Source: Chloroflexota bacterium (GTDB taxonomy: Bacteria > Chloroflexota > Dehalococcoidia > SHYM01). Taken from it: a stretch of DNA of 11,396 nucleotides. Of this stretch, positions 1,657 to 11,254 are shown one piece after another (position 1 is the stretch's first letter; each line of letters starts with the position of its first letter). Both the position numbers and the translations under genes were made by a program. The stretch covers positions 1 through 11,396 of the forward strand of contig JACQGV010000229.1 of assembly GCA_016199375.1 (NCBI GenBank), in the 5' to 3' direction. The notes below the pieces were generated by a model. The model did no database searches. It saw only the letters and a list, made by a program, of their open reading frames with translations, and was not told where the DNA came from.

Positions 1657-2649
1657 CTACTCATCGCTAGAGAGCAATTCCAACAGCTGCAATAGATCCT
1701 GTCGGCGATCACGAACCAGGCGTTCCGCGGCCAAACGAAGCGCTTTGACATTCTCGCTATCGGCATTATCCATTTGTCTATATTCCTTCTCGAGGTTCAC
1801 TTGAAAACGAAAATAGCGTCGACGACTCTGAGTCCGCGGCCCAACAAGCGTTGGCAACAGATACAGAGCCTGCGAATGAACAGCTTCGCTCCCGCTGTCA
1901 AGTACAACGTCGAGGATTCGCGTGGACCAACCAAGAAGTCCCCAGTTCTTCACGCGATCGTAGAACATTGGTCTCGCGTGTTGTCCCGTGCCAATGGAGA
2001 CGAAAACGAACTGTTCCTCGGCTGCGTTGGGCCAGAGCCGCTTCGCCTCGCCATAAGCGCAAAGTGTGGGATTATTGGCGAAGATGCCACCATCGATCAG
2101 GGCCAAGTACTTGCCATTCAGATCTCGCCGGGCCGCGGGGAAGTACGTGGGGGCCGAGGCAGTAGCTCTCGCCACTTCCTTCATTGGGTGGTCGAATCCG
2201 GGCCGATTCTTCGCGAAGTACGTCGTAAAAAAGATCGGATTCCGTTGCTCTACATCGTAGCTTGGGATTACCAGCTCAGTGAGAGCGTCAGAGAGTCGCG
2301 TATCACCGAAGTATTCTTCCAGTACCCCGTCCAAGTTATCTGAGCTGTATCGCGGTCGTAGGAGACCCCCAAGGCCCACAACTGTGCGATAAAACGTCCT
2401 GCGAAAGATCTCAGGCCCCCTGCGCTCGTACAGTTGGACGAGATCGGACGCGGCGAAAGAGGGTCTTCCATCGAGGCCGGGCTTAGCAAGGCCGAGAGCG
2501 AGGATGCCACCCGTGGAGGTGCCCGCAATCAAATCGAAGAGCTTGGATGCGGGATGCCCCGTCTGTTCTTCGATCGCAGCGATGATGACCGCCGGAATAA
2601 CCCCACGGATTCCTCCGCCATCAATGGCCAGCACTCGAATGCGCTTCAC
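1657..2649 (-). CDS. Patatin-like phospholipase (CapV/COG3621-like)
   Basis: A 330-residue patatin-fold lipid acyl hydrolase. From the N-terminus it shows the oxyanion-hole loop DGGGIRG (residues 10-16), the nucleophile elbow GTSTG with Ser45, a conserved SAPTYFPA segment (165-172) and the DGG motif with catalytic Asp186 followed by NNP. The Ser-Asp dyad is intact, so an active phospholipase A-type enzyme is expected. GTG at 2649 is chosen because GGGAGG lies nine bases upstream and the protein then begins MKRIRVLAIDGGG, typical of the family. An upstream ATG (2682) lacks a ribosome binding site and runs into the attC region. Base composition is clearly lower in GC than the neighbours, and the gene is framed by attC-like sites, so it looks acquired. 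Family relatives include CBASS effectors, but no cyclase or other defence partner is present here. Confidence 0.9.
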   Translation of the reverse strand: MKRIRVLAIDGGGIRGVIPAVIIAAIEEQTGHPASKLFDLIAGTSTGGILALGLAKPGLDGRPSFAASDLVQLYERRGPEIFRRTFYRTVVGLGGLLRPRYSSDNLDGVLEEYFGDTRLSDALTELVIPSYDVEQRNPIFFTTYFAKNRPGFDHPMKEVARATASAPTYFPAARRDLNGKYLALIDGGIFANNPTLCAYGEAKRLWPNAAEEQFVFVSIGTGQHARPMFYDRVKNWGLLGWSTRILDVVLDSGSEAVHSQALYLLPTLVGPRTQSRRRYFRFQVNLEKEYRQMDNADSENVKALRLAAERLVRDRRQDLLQLLELLSSDE

Positions 2650-2692
2650 TACTTTGAACCTCCCGATCTGGTCGGCTAACATTGGAATATAG

Positions 2693-2778
2693 GGTTTCCG
2701 CCTAACACCCCGACCCTCAACGCTGGTCGGCATAACGCCAGGGAAACCGGTTGTTAGATGGTTTCCGCATAACACCCC
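2693..2778. repeat. Two 19-base near-identical direct repeats around attC-like core sites
   Basis: The + strand word GGTTTCCGCCTAACACCCC (2693-2711) recurs as GGTTTCCGCATAACACCCC (2760-2778), 18 of 19 bases matching. Each copy contains a GTTRRRY-like core on the minus strand: GTTAGGC in one and GTTATGC in the other. The second copy overlaps the broken end of the acyl-CoA dehydrogenase fragment. This fits a duplicated recombination junction, for example a minimal cassette or a secondary insertion site, but other explanations for a short tandem repeat remain possible. Confidence 0.65.
2700..2759 (-). repeat. attC-like site upstream of the patatin gene
   Basis: On the minus strand this 60-base segment begins with ATCTAAC, a perfect RYYYAAC core, and ends with GTTAGGC, a perfect GTTRRRY core. 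The outer arms pair as CTAACA/TGTTAG, continue with CC/GG across an unpaired A, and then CCCT/AGGG, giving the imperfect palindrome expected of attC. It lies 51 bases before the chosen patatin start. This would be the attC of a preceding cassette, placing the patatin cassette at roughly 1577-2706. The site is short and its middle is asymmetric, so confidence is moderate. Confidence 0.6.
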
Positions 2779-2789
2779 CACCAGGCCCG

Positions 2790-4955: not shown

Positions 4956-5210
4956 TTACTTTCTCCGGGTGCTAGTCAGGGGACGCTGATTCTGGATGGT
5001 CACTGTGGGGTTGGAGCTTGGCCGCGGGACTGGGAGGCCGCGCTCTTTAAGGAGAGCCAGGTGTTCCTCCATCCCCCACTTAGCTTGGTACAAGCAGTCC
5101 TCTACGGAGTGCCCGATTCCCGAAAAACCCTCAAGCTCAGGAGAGTAGAACCCGAAAAATGTCGGGTCAGCCGTCGCTTCAACAACGAGCGAGTATCTAA
5201 GGTCAATCAC
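4956..5210 (-). CDS. hicB: HicB-like antitoxin
   Basis: An 84-residue protein with the HicB-type partial RNase H fold: YSLVVEATADPTFFGFYSPE (strands 1-2), ELEGFSGIGHSVEDCLYQAKWGMEEHLALL (strand 3 and the long helix) and the conserved GLPVPRPSSNPTVTI. HicB antitoxins bind and neutralise the HicA RNase. The start is a GTG at 5210 that overlaps the hicA-like stop by eight bases, the tight coupling usual for this pair. The C-terminus (QNQRPLTSTRRK) shows no HTH or ribbon-helix-helix domain, so self-repression by DNA binding is not evident. The pair is AT-richer than the trp genes around it. Family call is good; antitoxin activity is inferred. Confidence 0.78.
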   Translation of the reverse strand: MIDLRYSLVVEATADPTFFGFYSPELEGFSGIGHSVEDCLYQAKWGMEEHLALLKERGLPVPRPSSNPTVTIQNQRPLTSTRRK

Positions 5211-5406
5211 CGCTGTCTCTCTTCGTTATTCCCGCCGCCTTCAGAATCGCATCACACGTACCTGTCGGCACCTCACGTGCGCCGTGGTAGTCTACTCTGA
5301 TGAGCCGCTCCCACCCCGGTTTCGCGTAGTACCGAATAGACCCCTTCTGATGAACAAGGCGAAACCCGCCCCGCTCCAAGCGACGGGCCAGCTCACTGAA
5401 GGTCAC
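5203..5406 (-). CDS. hicA: HicA-like toxin (YcfA/HicA mRNA interferase family)
   Basis: A 67-residue protein with the HicA double-stranded-RNA-binding-like layout: an N-terminal helix (FSELARRLERGGFRLV), a GS-containing strand (QKGSIRYYAKP, residues 20-30), a strand with a His (VDYHGAREVPTGT) and a final helix CDAILKAAGI. HicA toxins cut mRNA. In classical HicA the strand reads GSH and that His is catalytic; here it is GSI (Ile24), so activity is uncertain, although His41 is retained. The start is a GTG with AGGGA about seven bases upstream. It lies 34 bases after the DUF1059 gene and overlaps the hicB-like gene by eight bases. Finding a toxin-antitoxin pair inside a trp operon is unusual. 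Confidence 0.75.
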   Translation of the reverse strand: MTFSELARRLERGGFRLVHQKGSIRYYAKPGWERLIRVDYHGAREVPTGTCDAILKAAGITKRDSGD

Positions 5407-6837: not shown

Positions 6838-8313
6838 CTAGTGTAGCACGGCCTGTCCGGCGGCGGCGGCCGCCTGCTCGGCATGCTCGATGGCCCGCAG
6901 CGGCGCCAGGGCCTTGTTCAGGCTCTCCTGGTACTCCAGCTCCGGCACGGAGTCGAATACGATGCCCCCGCCGGCCTGCACGTGGGCCACCCCGTCCTTG
7001 AGGACGAGGGTGCGGATGGTGATGGCGGTGTCCATGTTGCCGTCGAAGCCGAAGTAGCCCACGGCGCCGCTGTAGGGCCCGCGTTTGACGGGCTCCACCG
7101 CGGCGATGATCTCCATGGCCCGGATCTTGGGGGCGCCGGAGAGGGTGCCGGCGGGGAGGCAGGCCCGCAGGGCATCGAAGCAGCTCTTATCGCGCCGCAG
7201 GGCCCCGTGCACCTCGGACTCCAGGTGCATCACATGGGAGTAGCGGACGACCCGCATGAGGTCGGTGACCTGCACCGAGCCGGGCTCGCTCACCCGCCCC
7301 ACGTCGTTGCGGCCCAGGTCCACCAGCATGATGTGCTCCGCCCGCTCCTTCTCGTCGGCGCGCAGCTCCGCGGCCAGGGCCGCGTCCTCCTCGGGCGTGG
7401 CGCCCCGCCGCCGCGTGCCCGCCAGGGGGAAGTTGTAGATGGTGCCGTCCTCCACCCGCACCAGCAGCTCGGGGGAGGCGCCGATGATGTGAAAGTCGTC
7501 CAGGTGCAAGAAGTACATGTAGGGCGAGGGGTTGATGGCCCGCAGGGCGCGGTAGATGTCGAAGGGGTTAGCCTGGGTGGGCCGGGCCAAGCGCTGGGAG
7601 GGCACGACCTGGATGATGTCGCCGGCCACGATGTAGTCCCTGCAGCGCTCCACCATGGCCAGATAGGCGTCCCGGGTGAAGTTGGAGGTCACGGCCGCGG
7701 CCGCCGACGGTGGGGCGGGCGAGCGCTTCAGCCGCAGGGGTTTCTGCAGCCGCCGCGCCAGCCGCTCGATGCGCCCCGCGGCCTGGGCGTAGGCCGCCTC
7801 CACGTCTCCGTCCAGGCGGACGTGGCTGATGACCTTGATGACGTGCTTCAGGTGGTCGAAGACCAGCAGGGTGTCCGTGAAAAGGAAGACGGACTCCGGC
7901 AGGCCCAGGGGGTCGGCCGCGGGCGCGGGGATGCGGGGCTCGTAGTAGCGGGTGACCTCGTAGGCCAGGAAGCCCACGGCGCCGCCCAGGAAACGGGGGA
8001 GGCCAGGGACCGGCACCGGGCGGTAGCGGCGCAGCTCCCTCTCGATCAGAAGGAGCGGGTCCACGGCGCCCTGGCGCTGGCCGGGGCCGGTCTTGATGAT
8101 CTTGTAGGGTTGGGTGCCGATGAAGCTGTAGCGGGCCAGCCGCTCGCCGCCTTCCACGCTTTCCAGGAGGAAGGAGTGCTTGCCCCGGGCCACCTTGAGG
8201 AAGGCCGAGACCGGCGTCTCCAGGTCGGCCGCCAGCTCGCGGTAGATGGGCACCAGGTTGCCCCGCGCCGCCAGCTCTCTGACCTGGTCCAGACTTGGTG
8301 TATACACGTTCAC
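6838..8313 (-). CDS. trpE: Anthranilate synthase component I
   Basis: A 491-residue chorismate-utilising enzyme that, with TrpG, converts chorismate and glutamine to anthranilate. The N-terminal domain carries LLES (residues 49-52), and the catalytic domain has NPSPYMYF; both belong to the Trp feedback site, so end-product inhibition is likely. Further family motifs are GTRRRG, HIMLVDLGRND, the chorismate-binding AGTLSGAPKIRAMEII, GPYSGAVGYFGFDG and the C-terminal QAGGGIVFDSVPELEYQESLNKA. Length is typical. The GTG at 8313 overlaps the STAS-like stop as GTGA and has GAGGT six bases upstream inside that gene, so it is translationally coupled to it. Transcription should depend on the T-box leader about 1.3 kb upstream unless a hidden internal promoter exists. 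Confidence 0.98.
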   Translation of the reverse strand: MNVYTPSLDQVRELAARGNLVPIYRELAADLETPVSAFLKVARGKHSFLLESVEGGERLARYSFIGTQPYKIIKTGPGQRQGAVDPLLLIERELRRYRPVPVPGLPRFLGGAVGFLAYEVTRYYEPRIPAPAADPLGLPESVFLFTDTLLVFDHLKHVIKVISHVRLDGDVEAAYAQAAGRIERLARRLQKPLRLKRSPAPPSAAAAVTSNFTRDAYLAMVERCRDYIVAGDIIQVVPSQRLARPTQANPFDIYRALRAINPSPYMYFLHLDDFHIIGASPELLVRVEDGTIYNFPLAGTRRRGATPEEDAALAAELRADEKERAEHIMLVDLGRNDVGRVSEPGSVQVTDLMRVVRYSHVMHLESEVHGALRRDKSCFDALRACLPAGTLSGAPKIRAMEIIAAVEPVKRGPYSGAVGYFGFDGNMDTAITIRTLVLKDGVAHVQAGGGIVFDSVPELEYQESLNKALAPLRAIEHAEQAAAAAGQAVLH

Positions 8314-8666
8314 GCGCCGACCTCGTTTTCACTGGCGCCTTTGACGAGGAGCCAGTTGCCGTTGTCCAGCTCGCGTATCAATACACCATGAGCCCGCCCC
8401 ACGGCCTGGAACTTGAGCGATAGGCGCGTCGGTGGGTTGAGCAGGATCACGCGCATTCGCACGGCCTCCCCCAGGAGCGCCTCGATGATTGCGACTACCT
8501 CGTCGAGAAACGACGGCGTGACACCGTCCACACCGCTAAAGTCGAGGGCGACCTCCTGCTGGTCCTCGGACAACGCTTGTCTTAACGCAGGCCCAATAGC
8601 CTTGGCGGACTCGCGTGTGACCAATACGCGTCTGCCAAGCAAGTCGTAAACTTTCACCGCACTCAT
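8310..8666 (-). CDS. STAS-like protein (DUF4325 type)
   Basis: A 118-residue protein whose middle, VALDFSGVDGVTPSFLDEVV (residues 39-58), is the hallmark of the STAS-like DUF4325 family: a hydrophobic strand, a short loop ending near Ser/Thr, and the following helix. STAS domains act as anti-anti-sigma factors or partner-switch components. ATG 8666 is chosen over an upstream in-frame ATG because GAGGAG lies six bases before it, overlapping the stop of the HATPase gene. The gene ends in a four-base GTGA overlap with trpE. GC is noticeably lower than in trpE. Pairing with an adjacent HATPase protein suggests a signalling module. What it senses is unknown. Confidence 0.78.
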   Translation of the reverse strand: MSAVKVYDLLGRRVLVTRESAKAIGPALRQALSEDQQEVALDFSGVDGVTPSFLDEVVAIIEALLGEAVRMRVILLNPPTRLSLKFQAVGRAHGVLIRELDNGNWLLVKGASENEVGA

Positions 8667-8676
8667 TGGGCTCTCC

Positions 8677-9534
8677 TCAAGTTGGGATCGAGGCATACGC
8701 TAGCGTGCCGGGGAACAGCGTCACCCTCTTGGCCTCGCTTTCAATCTCTTCACTGATCTGCAACGCGCCCGAGCCCGAATGGATTATGAGCTGGCGCCCA
8801 TCTCTTCTCATGTCCTCGGAGACCCCGTAGAGACCGATGCCGCGCGTCGGATCGCCGGTGCCGCTGATGCGTTCTCTGACAGCGAGCTCGATGGCTACCC
8901 AGTCGTAGGGCACGCGGTCCCGGAGCGCCGGGTTGCGCTCGAGAGACCGCCTAATTCCGATGCCGCCATCGGCCACGCCACAGACGAAACGCCTGCCTGC
9001 TTCGAATTGATAGAACTGGATGAATCCATAGGCGCCGATGGGAGAGTCCGCGTGCTGAACTGCGTTTAGGGCCAGCTCCGCGAATAGCTCAGATACGAGA
9101 GGGTGGAGGTTGACAGCACCCAGGCCAGATGAAGTAAGCGCCTCCAGCGCGTTGTTGGCCAATTCCTCGACCTGAGGTTCGGTGTGGAACCCTGTCAACG
9201 ACATGACAATCTGAGGGTCCCGTCTCGTCGGGATCCCTCGGTCATCTACCGTAACGCCGCTGCTTTGCAGGGCTTGGAATAGGCCCAGAGACTTGAGGTA
9301 CGTGCAGACGCCGACATTGCCGGGCACCAAGAGTTCGCAGGCGCTCCCTCTTAGGCGGGCTAGCAGCGGGTATATCACACACCACAGCACAGCAGAGGGC
9401 CGTATAAATTCACATTGTCGCAGATCGATCTGGACATCGCGCTCCGAAAAGGTGGAAAGTCGCGGGTCATGGCTGGCAAACCTCGACGACAACTCCGAGG
9501 CATTCCTGAAATTTCCTGGAGCTTCGATGCGCAT
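8677..9534 (-). CDS. STAS-like plus GHKL-ATPase (HATPase_c) protein
   Basis: A 285-residue protein. Residues about 30-95 (VQIDLRQCEFIRPSAVLWCV) look like a STAS-type or related alpha/beta domain. Residues about 145-240 form a GHKL ATP-binding domain with an N-box ELFAELALNAVQHA (Glu153, Asn157), a G1 box VADGGIGI (Asp189) and a G2 box TRGIGLYGV (231-238). This resembles anti-sigma-factor kinases or signalling ATPases rather than a sensor kinase: there is no phosphorylatable-His dimerisation domain and no membrane segment. ATG 9534 is preferred because GGAAGG lies six bases upstream; a TTG at 9558 sits too close to its candidate ribosome site. It is the first gene after the Trp T-box terminator and is lower in GC than the trp genes. 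Phosphorylation of the neighbouring STAS-like protein is a guess. Confidence 0.8.
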   Translation of the reverse strand: MRIEAPGNFRNASELSSRFASHDPRLSTFSERDVQIDLRQCEFIRPSAVLWCVIYPLLARLRGSACELLVPGNVGVCTYLKSLGLFQALQSSGVTVDDRGIPTRRDPQIVMSLTGFHTEPQVEELANNALEALTSSGLGAVNLHPLVSELFAELALNAVQHADSPIGAYGFIQFYQFEAGRRFVCGVADGGIGIRRSLERNPALRDRVPYDWVAIELAVRERISGTGDPTRGIGLYGVSEDMRRDGRQLIIHSGSGALQISEEIESEAKRVTLFPGTLAYASIPT

Positions 9535-9565
9535 CGAATGCCTTCCGAGATAGACCAAGTCCCCT

Positions 9566-9594
9566 AATAAATAACCCCGCCACTAGGGGCGGGG
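9566..9594 (-). terminator. Intrinsic terminator of the T-box leader
   Basis: On the minus strand CCCCGCC and GGCGGGG (9575-9594) form a 7-base-pair stem with a six-base loop, extendable by A-U and G-U pairs, followed by TTATTTATT (9566-9574). The 5' arm of C residues can instead pair with AGGG of the T-box, giving the mutually exclusive antiterminator. It ends 31 bases before the chosen start of the HATPase gene. Confidence 0.9.
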
Positions 9595-9838
9595 CTACCG
9601 CGGTGCCACCCTGCTTCAGTTCGCCGGAGGCGAACCCTCTTTTCAGGCGCCCCGCCCAGGCGGGATGCCCTGGACCTGTAACGGTGTCCCTCCGGCAGGG
9701 CCTACTCGTCCCGCGCGCGGGACTTTTGGGCTGCGGCTCCGGGGTCCATTCGGCCGTTCGCGCGGGCACCGGGTCGCACCGTCCCCCGGCTCTCTGGGCC
9801 CCGCTTGCGGCCTACTAGTCCCCTTCAGCGCCGTTGCT
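9566..9838 (-). promoter_or_regulatory. T-box riboswitch, tRNA-Trp specific
   Basis: On the minus strand a full T-box leader can be read. Stem I has a GCTGA/GGAGC kink-turn-like base, an AGTAG in the specifier loop (9812-9816), the AGAGAG motif (9790-9795) and the GGTGCGA segment near the apex. The 3' side of the specifier loop reads GAATGGACCCC, placing UGG (9746-9748), the tryptophan codon. Then come a GTCCCGCG/CGCGGGAC hairpin, a GTTCGCC/GGCGAAC hairpin, and the T-box AGGGTGGCACCGCGG (9598-9612). Its UGGC bulge (9605-9608) would pair with the tRNA 3' end and fits a G discriminator base, usual in tRNA-Trp. An intrinsic terminator follows. Uncharged tRNA-Trp should permit readthrough into the downstream genes. 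Confidence 0.94.
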
Positions 9839-9847
9839 TATGCCAAG

Positions 9848-9876
9848 AGCTTACCAGGGGGCCCCAGCCTTGTCAA
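9848..9876 (-). promoter_or_regulatory. Sigma70-type promoter driving the T-box trp transcript
   Basis: Minus strand: perfect TTGACA (9871-9876), a 17-base spacer, and TAAGCT (9848-9853). Transcription would begin near 9841, only a few bases before T-box stem I. It lies 13 bases after the trpB2 stop codon, so the T-box operon has its own promoter distinct from whatever drives trpB2. Confidence 0.8.
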
Positions 9877-9889
9877 AGGCCGGGCGCAC

Positions 9890-11254
9890 CTACACCGCCA
9901 CCTTGGGCAGCGCCTTGAGCGCCTCCTCCACCTTCTCCTTGGGGTAGGCGTAGTCCTCCAGCTTGCCCGACAGGTAGGCGTCGTAGGCGCCCAGGTCGAA
10001 GTGGCCGTGCCCGCTCAGGTTGAACAGGATGGTCTTGCGCTGGCCCGCCTGCTTGGCCCGCAGCGCCTCGTCAATGACCGTGCGGATGGCGTGGGCCGAT
10101 TCCGGCGCCGGGATTATCCCCTCGGTGCGGGCGAACTGGACGGCGGCCTCGAAGACGGGGCGCTGGTGGACGGCGACGCACTCGATGACCTTGTGGGCGT
10201 ACAGGTGGCTGATGAGGGGCGCCATGCCATGGTAGCGCAGGCCGCCGGCGTGGATGGCCGCGGGGACGAAGGTGTGGCCCAGGGTGTACATCTTCACCAG
10301 CGGCGTCAGGCCCACGGTGTCGCCGAAGTCGTAGGCGTAGACCCCGCGGGTGAGGCTGGGGGCGGCCTCGGGCTCCACGGCCACCAGGCGCAGCTCCTTG
10401 CGCCCGCCCTTCAGCTTGTCCTGGGCGAAGGGAAGCATGAGGCCGGAGAAGTTGGAGCCGCCGCCAATGCAGCCCACCACCAGATCGGGGTACTCGCCGG
10501 CCTTCTCTATCTGGAGCCTGGCCTCCTGGCCGATGATGGTCTGGTGCATGAGCACGTGGTTCAGGACGCTGCCCAGGCTGTACTTGGTGTCGTCGCGGGT
10601 GGCGGCGTCCTCCACGGCCTCGGAGATGGCGATGCCCAGGGAGCCGGGCGAGCTGGGGTCCTGGGCCAGCACCTTGCGGCCGGCCTGGGTGTCCTGGCTG
10701 GGGCTGGCCACCACCTTGGCGCCCCACGTCTCCATGAGGATGCGGCGGTAGGGCTTCTGCTGGTAGCTGACCTTCACCATGTAGACTTTGCACTCCAGCC
10801 CGAAGAACTGGCAGGCCAGGGCCAGGGCGCTGCCCCACTGGCCGGCGCCGGTCTCCGTGGCCAGCCTCTTGACCCCTTCCTGCTTGTTGTAGTAGGCCTG
10901 GGCGACGGCGGTGTTGGGCTTGTGGCTGCCCGCCGGGCTGACGCCCTCGTACTTGTAGTAGATGTGGGCCGGGGTGTCCAGTGCCCGCTCCAGCCGGCGC
11001 GCCCGGTAGACGGGCGTGGGCCGCCACAGCCGGTAGATCGCCTGGACCTCCTCCGGGATATCCAGGTAGCGCTCCTGGCTGACCTCTTGCTTGATGAGCT
11101 CCATGGGGAAGAGTGGCGCCAGGTCCTGGGGGCCGATGGGCTTGCCGGTGCCCGGGTGCAGCACCGGCGGCAGGGGCGCCGGCAGGTCGGGGGCGATGTT
11201 GTACCAGCGGCCCGGCATCTCCCTTTCGCTGAGGGTGATCTTGGTCTCTTCCAT
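9890..11254 (-). CDS. trpB2: Tryptophan synthase beta chain, TrpB2 type
   Basis: A 454-residue fold-type II PLP enzyme of the TrpB2 group, which makes tryptophan from serine and indole. The PLP lysine is Lys112 in GSHKPN, with the TrpB2-style N-terminal extension before it (classical TrpB is about 400 residues). The catalytic Glu134 lies in ETGAGQWG, where TrpB1 usually has QHG. The phosphate-binding GGGSN loop and [12 protein letters not shown] (indole/serine side) are present, and SGHGHFD near residue 415 completes the PLP site. The ATG at 11254 has an AG-rich site, GGGAGAAGGG, just upstream. No trpA is next to it, common for TrpB2, which binds TrpA poorly. It is transcribed ahead of, but apparently separately from, the T-box trp operon. 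Confidence 0.95.

What the first reader, a model, noticed from the sequence alone, without database searches (positions are those of the whole stretch)
8310..9838. A Trp T-box leader opens onto a STAS/HATPase signalling pair rather than a trp gene
A complete tRNA-Trp T-box and terminator is followed not by trpE but by a GHKL-ATPase protein with a STAS-like N-terminus and a DUF4325-type STAS protein. trpE comes only after these. The pair is lower in GC than trpE yet is fully integrated: the two genes nearly abut, and the second overlaps trpE by GTGA while carrying the trpE Shine-Dalgarno. So a partner-switch-like module appears to be made when charged tRNA-Trp is scarce. It may be a hitchhiking insertion, or a device that reports Trp starvation to other regulators. 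I know of no described case.
Basis: partly seen in the sequence, partly recalled or inferred. Interest (0 to 1): 0.75.

Follow-up and report, generated by a model that had tools for sequence, protein, structure and literature searches.

The report
Signalling gene pair inside tryptophan operon
A small portable kinase-and-partner gene pair, built like a recently described bacterial immune switch, has landed between the tRNA-sensing leader and the first gene of a tryptophan operon, so it is probably made when tryptophan runs short; it looks like an insertion that hitched a ride rather than a designed starvation alarm.

Summary
Observation confirmed: a Trp T-box (9582-9837, minus strand, specifier TGG, intact terminator) is followed by a 285-aa STAS+GHKL protein, a 118-aa DUF4325 STAS protein and then trpE, which overlaps the STAS stop by GTGA. 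The 'hitchhiking insertion' reading is supported; the 'reporting device' reading is not. In the sister genus both trpE copies follow the same T-box directly. The pair is foreign by GC3 (69-74%, against 92-96% in four trp genes) and recurs in unrelated operons. At one other junction, within one genus, the site is empty in two genomes, filled in two by pairs only about 50% identical (flanking gene 87%), and holds STAS alone in a fifth; a neighbouring genus carries HicBA there. The window's trp operon holds a second insert, HicAB. The kinase domain best matches SpoIIAB/UsfX/RsbW, and the layout is that of VapK-VapS (EMBO J 2026), without VapC and without CapS's DNA-binding domain. Best reading: an orphan VapK/VapS-like cassette riding a Trp T-box operon; T-box control is inferred, not shown. 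Anti-TRAP is a known Trp-T-box-controlled regulator.

The parts
9848..9876 (-). candidate promoter TTGACA-17-TAAGCT upstream of the T-box
   Evidence: read by eye; the same two hexamers and spacing stand in sister-genus copy L036. The consensus scan does not list it; its -10 has only 3 of 6 matches.
9582..9837 (-). Trp T-box leader RNA (specifier TGG at 9746-9748; T-box sequence 9598-9612)
   Evidence: RF00230 72.3 bits, E 9.4e-16, below gathering 93; the only RF00230 match in G000, a 63%-complete bin
9570..9599 (-). terminator hairpin followed by TTATTTATT (its first bases pair in the fold)
   Evidence: MFE -20.8 kcal/mol, z -2.41; same stem core in both sister-genus copies
8677..9534 (-). 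VapK/CapK-like kinase: N-terminal STAS-like domain (about 1-99) + SpoIIAB-type GHKL kinase domain (about 106-285), 285 aa
8310..8666 (-). VapS-like STAS protein (DUF4325), 118 aa, invariant Ser52
   Evidence: PF14213 E 1.4e-7; S52 in 24 of 24 aligned homologues
8310..8313 (-). GTGA overlap of STAS stop with trpE start; Shine-Dalgarno-like GAGG within STAS
6838..8313 (-). trpE, the native gene of this T-box
   Evidence: PF00425 2e-92, PF04715 6e-32; T-box directly upstream of trpE in the sister genus
9890..11254 (-). trpB-like gene upstream of the T-box (native neighbour; 3' part kept in sister-genus copy L036)
   Evidence: NF009057 E 3.9e-228
4956..5406 (-). second insert in the same operon: HicA (5203-5406) + HicB-like (4956-5210) between DUF1059 and trpD
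   Evidence: HicA PF07927 2.3e-12; HicB PF15919 0.015, below cut-off; absent in sister genus

Best explanation
The two genes are an orphan kinase/STAS switch cassette, built like VapK-VapS, that inserted between the terminator of a pre-existing Trp T-box and trpE. SHOWN by sequence comparison: T-box-trpE without the pair is the state in the sister genus; the pair is a two-gene unit found in unrelated operons; it differs in composition from the trp genes; the kinase has a predicted SpoIIAB-like domain with intact nucleotide-binding motifs; the STAS partner has an invariant serine. INFERRED: the kinase phosphorylates Ser52 of the STAS protein and so releases an unknown client; the input may be single-stranded DNA or another stress signal, as in CapK; transcription is by read-through of the T-box, hence raised when tRNA-Trp is uncharged; trpE is translated by coupling to STAS. 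The Trp link is most likely a by-product of where the cassette landed.
Against: No direct experiment. No VapC, winged helix or sigma factor adjoins the pair, so client and output are unknown. The bin is 63% complete, so a client could be missing. Three of 12 pair loci (L041, L067, L071) are frame-broken. One weak promoter-like site lies inside the HATPase gene (8811-8783; 1 found in the scanned region against 0.5 expected). Two transfers are not dated, and no tree was built.
Confidence: 0.8

Rival explanations
1. A selected Trp-starvation signalling device: the T-box makes the pair when tRNA-Trp is uncharged, and the pair reports this to other regulators or to the trp enzymes.
For: T-box and terminator intact, pair intact with its motifs, no promoter-like site listed between terminator and pair; anti-TRAP shows that a Trp T-box can drive a regulator.
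Against: Arrangement in 1 of 30 trpE loci and absent in the sister genus; the 11 other pair loci show no trpE among the neighbours listed; a second unrelated insert, HicAB, sits in the same operon.
Confidence: 0.1
2. CapKS-like control of the downstream gene: the pair regulates trpE itself, as CapK-CapS control the operon that follows them.
For: The kinase-STAS pair sits directly upstream of the gene, as capK-capS do with immune operons.
Against: CapS acts through a C-terminal winged helix; this STAS protein is 118 aa and its model shows one domain. Downstream genes of the relatives differ.
Confidence: 0.05
3. Assembly artefact: the pair was joined to a trp contig by mis-assembly of the metagenome.
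For: Single contig of a fragmented bin of 251 contigs; composition differs from neighbours. Read coverage could not be checked.
Against: Both flanks (trpB-like-T-box, and trpE onward to trpD) are syntenic with the sister genus, so two clean breakpoints would be needed, one forming a GTGA overlap; similarly stitched pairs stand in other genomes.
Confidence: 0.05

Closest known systems
VapK-VapS of VapKSC (Chambers et al., EMBO J 2026, PMC13373217)
   Same: STAS-GHKL kinase without HTH, followed by a short STAS protein with a conserved serine
   Different: no VapC PIN toxin adjacent; similarity to the solved VapS not significant (E 0.44); sits in a Trp T-box operon
CapK-CapS (same paper)
   Same: kinase then STAS partner, upstream of another gene; STAS+GHKL architecture in the kinase
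   Different: no HTH on the kinase, no winged helix on the STAS protein, downstream gene is metabolic
SpoIIAB-SpoIIAA / RsbW-RsbV partner switch
   Different: extra N-terminal STAS-like domain on the kinase; no sigma factor beside it
Trp T-box controlled anti-TRAP (rtpA/yczA) of Bacillus subtilis (PMC11255114 abstract, PMC2494555 passages)
   Same: a Trp T-box whose read-through makes a regulatory protein
   Different: anti-TRAP acts on trp operon control itself; here the pair looks inserted and no trp-related target is known
MNT-HEPN module in the lysine operon of Thermus thermophilus HB8 but not HB27 (Makarova et al. 2009, PMC2701414, passage)
   Same: a mobile two-gene module present or absent inside a biosynthetic operon of close relatives
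   Different: unrelated proteins; no T-box mentioned in the passage

Membership tests
T-box leader (RF00230), Trp specificity | covariance-model match over the gathering score | tested here: not met
   72.3 bits against 93, though E 9.4e-16 and full length; sister-genus T-box 90.6. Kept as a T-box because the two features below are met.
T-box leader (RF00230), Trp specificity | specifier triplet UGG and T-box sequence in the right places of the model | tested here: met
   conserved in three leaders
T-box leader (RF00230), Trp specificity | intrinsic terminator that competes with the antiterminator | tested here: met
   hairpin 9599-9570, -20.8 kcal/mol; competition itself not tested
VapKSC (VapK-VapS-VapC) | kinase with STAS + GHKL domains and no HTH | tested here: met
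VapKSC (VapK-VapS-VapC) | short STAS protein directly downstream with conserved Ser/Thr | tested here: met
   10-nt gap; S52 in 24 of 24
VapKSC (VapK-VapS-VapC) | VapC PIN toxin gene as third gene | tested here: not met
   next gene is trpE
VapKSC (VapK-VapS-VapC) | sequence homology to solved VapS | tested here: inconclusive
   9z7o_A E 0.44 with the STAS profile
VapKSC / CapKS | conserved aromatic in the kinase STAS domain at the ssDNA site (VapK F54, CapK W68) | tested here: inconclusive
   W51 invariant in 27 of 27 close homologues but absent from the six most divergent of 11; no CapK or VapK sequence to align
CapK-CapS | CapS winged-helix DNA-binding domain | tested here: not met
   118 aa; model shows one STAS-like domain
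CapK-CapS | followed by an immune operon | tested here: not met
   followed by trpE. In the paper 348 of 443 pairs were followed by one.
Anti-sigma-factor-type kinase (SpoIIAB/RsbW) | GHKL fold closest to the SpoIIAB family | tested here: met
Partner switch | Ser phosphorylation of the STAS protein by the kinase | not testable with these tools
   needs a kinase assay
STAS (DUF4325) | Pfam model over cut-off | tested here: met
   31.6 bits against 23
STAS (DUF4325) | STAS fold by structure comparison | tested here: inconclusive

The most novel reading that the evidence does not exclude
The Trp T-box has become the switch of a conflict module: uncharged tRNA-Trp, from starvation or from an attack on translation, raises read-through and so makes the kinase/STAS switch, trpE and, further down the same operon, HicAB together, tying tRNA-Trp charging to a stress or defence response. 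More broadly, kinase/STAS cassettes in Chloroflexota may specialise in stitching themselves into housekeeping operons, at junctions that they share with HicAB-type modules, borrowing whatever regulation is there.
Probability: 0.12. Interest if true: 0.8.

Novelty: new variant of a known kind. Interest (0 to 1): 0.5.

Why it matters
It shows a VapK/VapS-like switch without its known outputs (no VapC, no DNA-binding STAS, no immune operon) as a portable two-gene unit in Chloroflexota, and documents presence, absence and divergent versions of it at a defined operon junction, one where HicBA sits in a neighbouring genus. That makes the question of what orphan kinase/STAS pairs do, and whether borrowed control such as a T-box matters, directly testable. 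It also warns that a gene behind a T-box need not be an amino-acid gene.

Tried and rejected
Rejected: a sigma-factor partner switch in cis (no sigma gene among the window's genes that I identified). Rejected: CapKS-type repression of trpE (no winged helix). Rejected: a family confined to this genome: kinase-like matches at E 1e-3 in 23 of 393 class genomes, own genome included and most of them divergent, in 3 of 60 relatives (own included), and with the profile at E 1e-20 in 8 of 400 phylum genomes (own included). Considered and not shown: a preference for co-directional insertion. In one search the called upstream neighbour is co-directional at 9 of 12 loci (not at L035, L038, L067; L035's is a doubtful 64-aa ORF), and ordinary genes are often co-directional too. 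No match: plasmids; viral contigs (21 stretches matched a pattern, none confirmed). In NCBIfam the pair matched nothing at E 0.01; in PADLOC the kinase matched nothing and STAS only DrmA at E 0.052, taken as chance. The PDB sequence searches found no significant relative of the kinase; for STAS the best rows (MCM3 at E 0.0035, others 0.03-0.5) are taken as chance. dN/dS could not be estimated: synonymous sites are saturated; pN for the window kinase against four relatives is 0.22-0.26, pS 0.77-0.88. Partner search in G000: STAS_2 none (8 genomes), HATPase_c_2 four sub-cut-off hits elsewhere, DUF4325 only the window's copy.
The suf junction is weak evidence. In G073 a broken pair lies between sufD and sufS. 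Of the 10 other genomes with a sufS match, the sufD and sufS matches end 65-150 nt apart in 3 (G103, same family, with sufD only 29% identical; G055; G006), 334-1153 nt apart in 5, and no sufD was found in the stretch in 2.

Literature: searches. DUF4325 appears in 2 papers of the library, both seen in the listing only. None of the listings showed a T-box with a kinase/STAS pair by title or abstract start; I claim absence no further than that. PMC13373217: outline, abstract, passages, and sections 7 and 10-14. PMC2494555, PMC3766115, PMC2701414: passages only. PMC11255114: outline and abstract only.
Full report
1. Observation. The window is one whole contig (G000:C210) of a 1.44-Mb, 63%-complete genome bin of 251 contigs. 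Named records with close relatives of the kinase are Chloroflexi, SAR202 and Dehalococcoidia, so the host is probably a Dehalococcoidia-like Chloroflexota (inferred). On the minus strand the order is: trpB-like gene, Trp T-box, HATPase, STAS, trpE, Zn-ribbon, Lrp-like, trpG, DUF1059, HicA, HicB-like, trpD. The T-box scores 72.3 bits (E 9.4e-16, full length), below Rfam's gathering score. Its specifier is TGG and its terminator hairpin is intact. It is the only T-box match in the bin.

2. The empty site. The only other genome of the same family among those searched, G001, has two trpE loci with high identity, 83% and (a copy cut by its contig end) 86%. In both, the same Trp T-box stands directly before trpE; L005's T-box was scored by Rfam (90.6 bits), L036's only by alignment to the others. 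The trpE start aligns again from GTGTATACACC / ATGTATACACC. L036 keeps a 3' part of the trpB-like gene upstream, as in the window; L005 has lon there. So T-box-trpE is the likely ancestral order in this family, and the pair entered between terminator and start codon.

I then looked at 30 trpE loci, the best-scoring of 56 genomes with a match among 60 searched. A T-box motif (one strict pattern) lies within the upstream stretch held, at most 1.5 kb, in 14 of 30: within 69-206 nt of the trpE match in 9, with a TrpS-like gene between (recognised by eye) in 4, and with the pair between in the window. Sixteen lack the motif; L013 held only 39 nt upstream. At Rfam's gathering score only 1 of 10 loci scanned (L005-L014) had a T-box, so that threshold misses some in this group.

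4. The closest described system. In PMC13373217 (abstract, passages, sections 7 and 10-14) CapK (HTH-STAS-GHKL) phosphorylates CapS (STAS-winged helix) when ssDNA is present and so de-represses the next operon; VapK (STAS-GHKL) with VapS (short STAS) is proposed to control a VapC toxin in the same way. The window pair has the VapK-VapS layout, without the CapS DNA-binding domain and without VapC. Profile similarity to the solved VapS is not significant (E 0.44). I therefore say that it most likely works like VapK-VapS, and do not file it as VapKSC or CapKS.

5. A portable cassette. Tandem kinase-then-STAS was found at 12 non-redundant loci (11 junctions) by tblastn at E 1e-3, the window included. 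laid out the window and 11 others: of those 12 loci all but L070, plus L086, whose STAS is more divergent. Neighbours differ: coaBC, a HAD gene and nucleotidyltransferase genes (Pfam), gyrA, sufD and sufS (Pfam), fumC-like and queA-like genes (by eye). Three copies are frame-broken (L041, L067, L071), and L042's STAS frame holds a stop (part of that locus is masked). Five kinase genes compared (L035, L037, L038, L040, L066) are all lower in GC than their loci. Divergent relatives lie near integrases: a kinase/DUF4325 pair directly behind a tyrosine integrase in L069, and phage Phishy gp32 with the integrase three genes on; its neighbours gp31 and gp33 have no Pfam match, gp34 was not scanned. 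The kinase matches PHROG phrog_3364, function unknown, E 2.8e-18.

6. A second junction, seen in several states. Six genomes of genus g135 were searched with the DUF255 protein; five had a match at E 1e-100, G739 had none. An unassigned gene (no Pfam match) and the DUF255 gene are adjacent in G220 and G336 (empty); G178 and G281 carry the pair between them; G263 carries a STAS-like gene alone. DUF255 proteins of G178 and G281 are 87.2% identical, but their kinases only 52.2% and their STAS proteins 49.1% (BLAST gave 48.6% and 50.0%). So the cassette was replaced, gained separately or evolved much faster than its neighbours. In another genus of the same family, G740, the same junction holds HicB-like (PF15919 1.6e-8) and HicA (PF07927 1.4e-14) genes. 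STAS stop and next start overlap or nearly touch at trpE (GTGA), DUF255 (ATGCCTAA, two genomes) and sufS (1 nt apart). The suf junction has only weak empty-site evidence (see Tried and rejected).

7. HicAB in the same trp operon. Between DUF1059 and trpD the window has HicA (PF07927 2.3e-12) and a HicB-like gene (PF15919 0.015, below cut-off), while G001 has six bases there. The window's trp operon thus differs from its relative's by two unrelated stress-type modules. This weakens the idea that the pair was recruited for Trp sensing and fits a general habit of such modules. A parallel in print is the MNT-HEPN module in the lysine operon of one Thermus strain (PMC2701414, passage).

8. Control. 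The terminator stem ends at 9570 and the kinase ATG is at 9534. The consensus scan listed no promoter-like site there; one weak site lies inside the kinase gene. A TTGACA-17-TAAGCT sequence precedes the T-box and recurs in L036, though the scan does not list it. T-box control of the pair is the simplest reading, but it is inference. Anti-TRAP of B. subtilis is a described Trp-T-box-controlled regulator.

9. Verdict. Observation confirmed. Interpretation partly supported: a hitchhiking insertion of a VapK/VapS-like cassette, not a dedicated starvation reporter, though T-box-driven expression probably follows from its position.

Noticed in passing
window 4956-5406 (-): HicA toxin and HicB-like antitoxin genes between DUF1059 and trpD; the sister genus lacks them.
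   Followed up: yes
L120 3598-4289 (-), genome G740: HicBA at the same junction where two genomes of another genus of the family carry the kinase/STAS pair and two carry nothing.
   Followed up: partly
L119 3540-3860 (-), genome G263: A STAS-like gene alone at the junction, without its kinase; Pfam's DUF4325 does not match it at E 0.01, but tblastn with the G178 STAS does, 45% identity.
   Followed up: partly
L034/L005 and L036, genome G001: Two lon-T-box-trpE regions in one bin, one with a trpB-like remnant; a duplication or two strains in the bin.
   Followed up: no
L086 4126-4989 (-): STAS partner in a 287-aa frame with a long C-terminal extension, possibly a fused output part; PIN-like and antitoxin-like genes lie nearby (by eye).
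   Followed up: no
window 1657-2781 (-): Patatin-like phospholipase with GC3 of 60%, far below the trp genes; another likely foreign gene.
   Followed up: no
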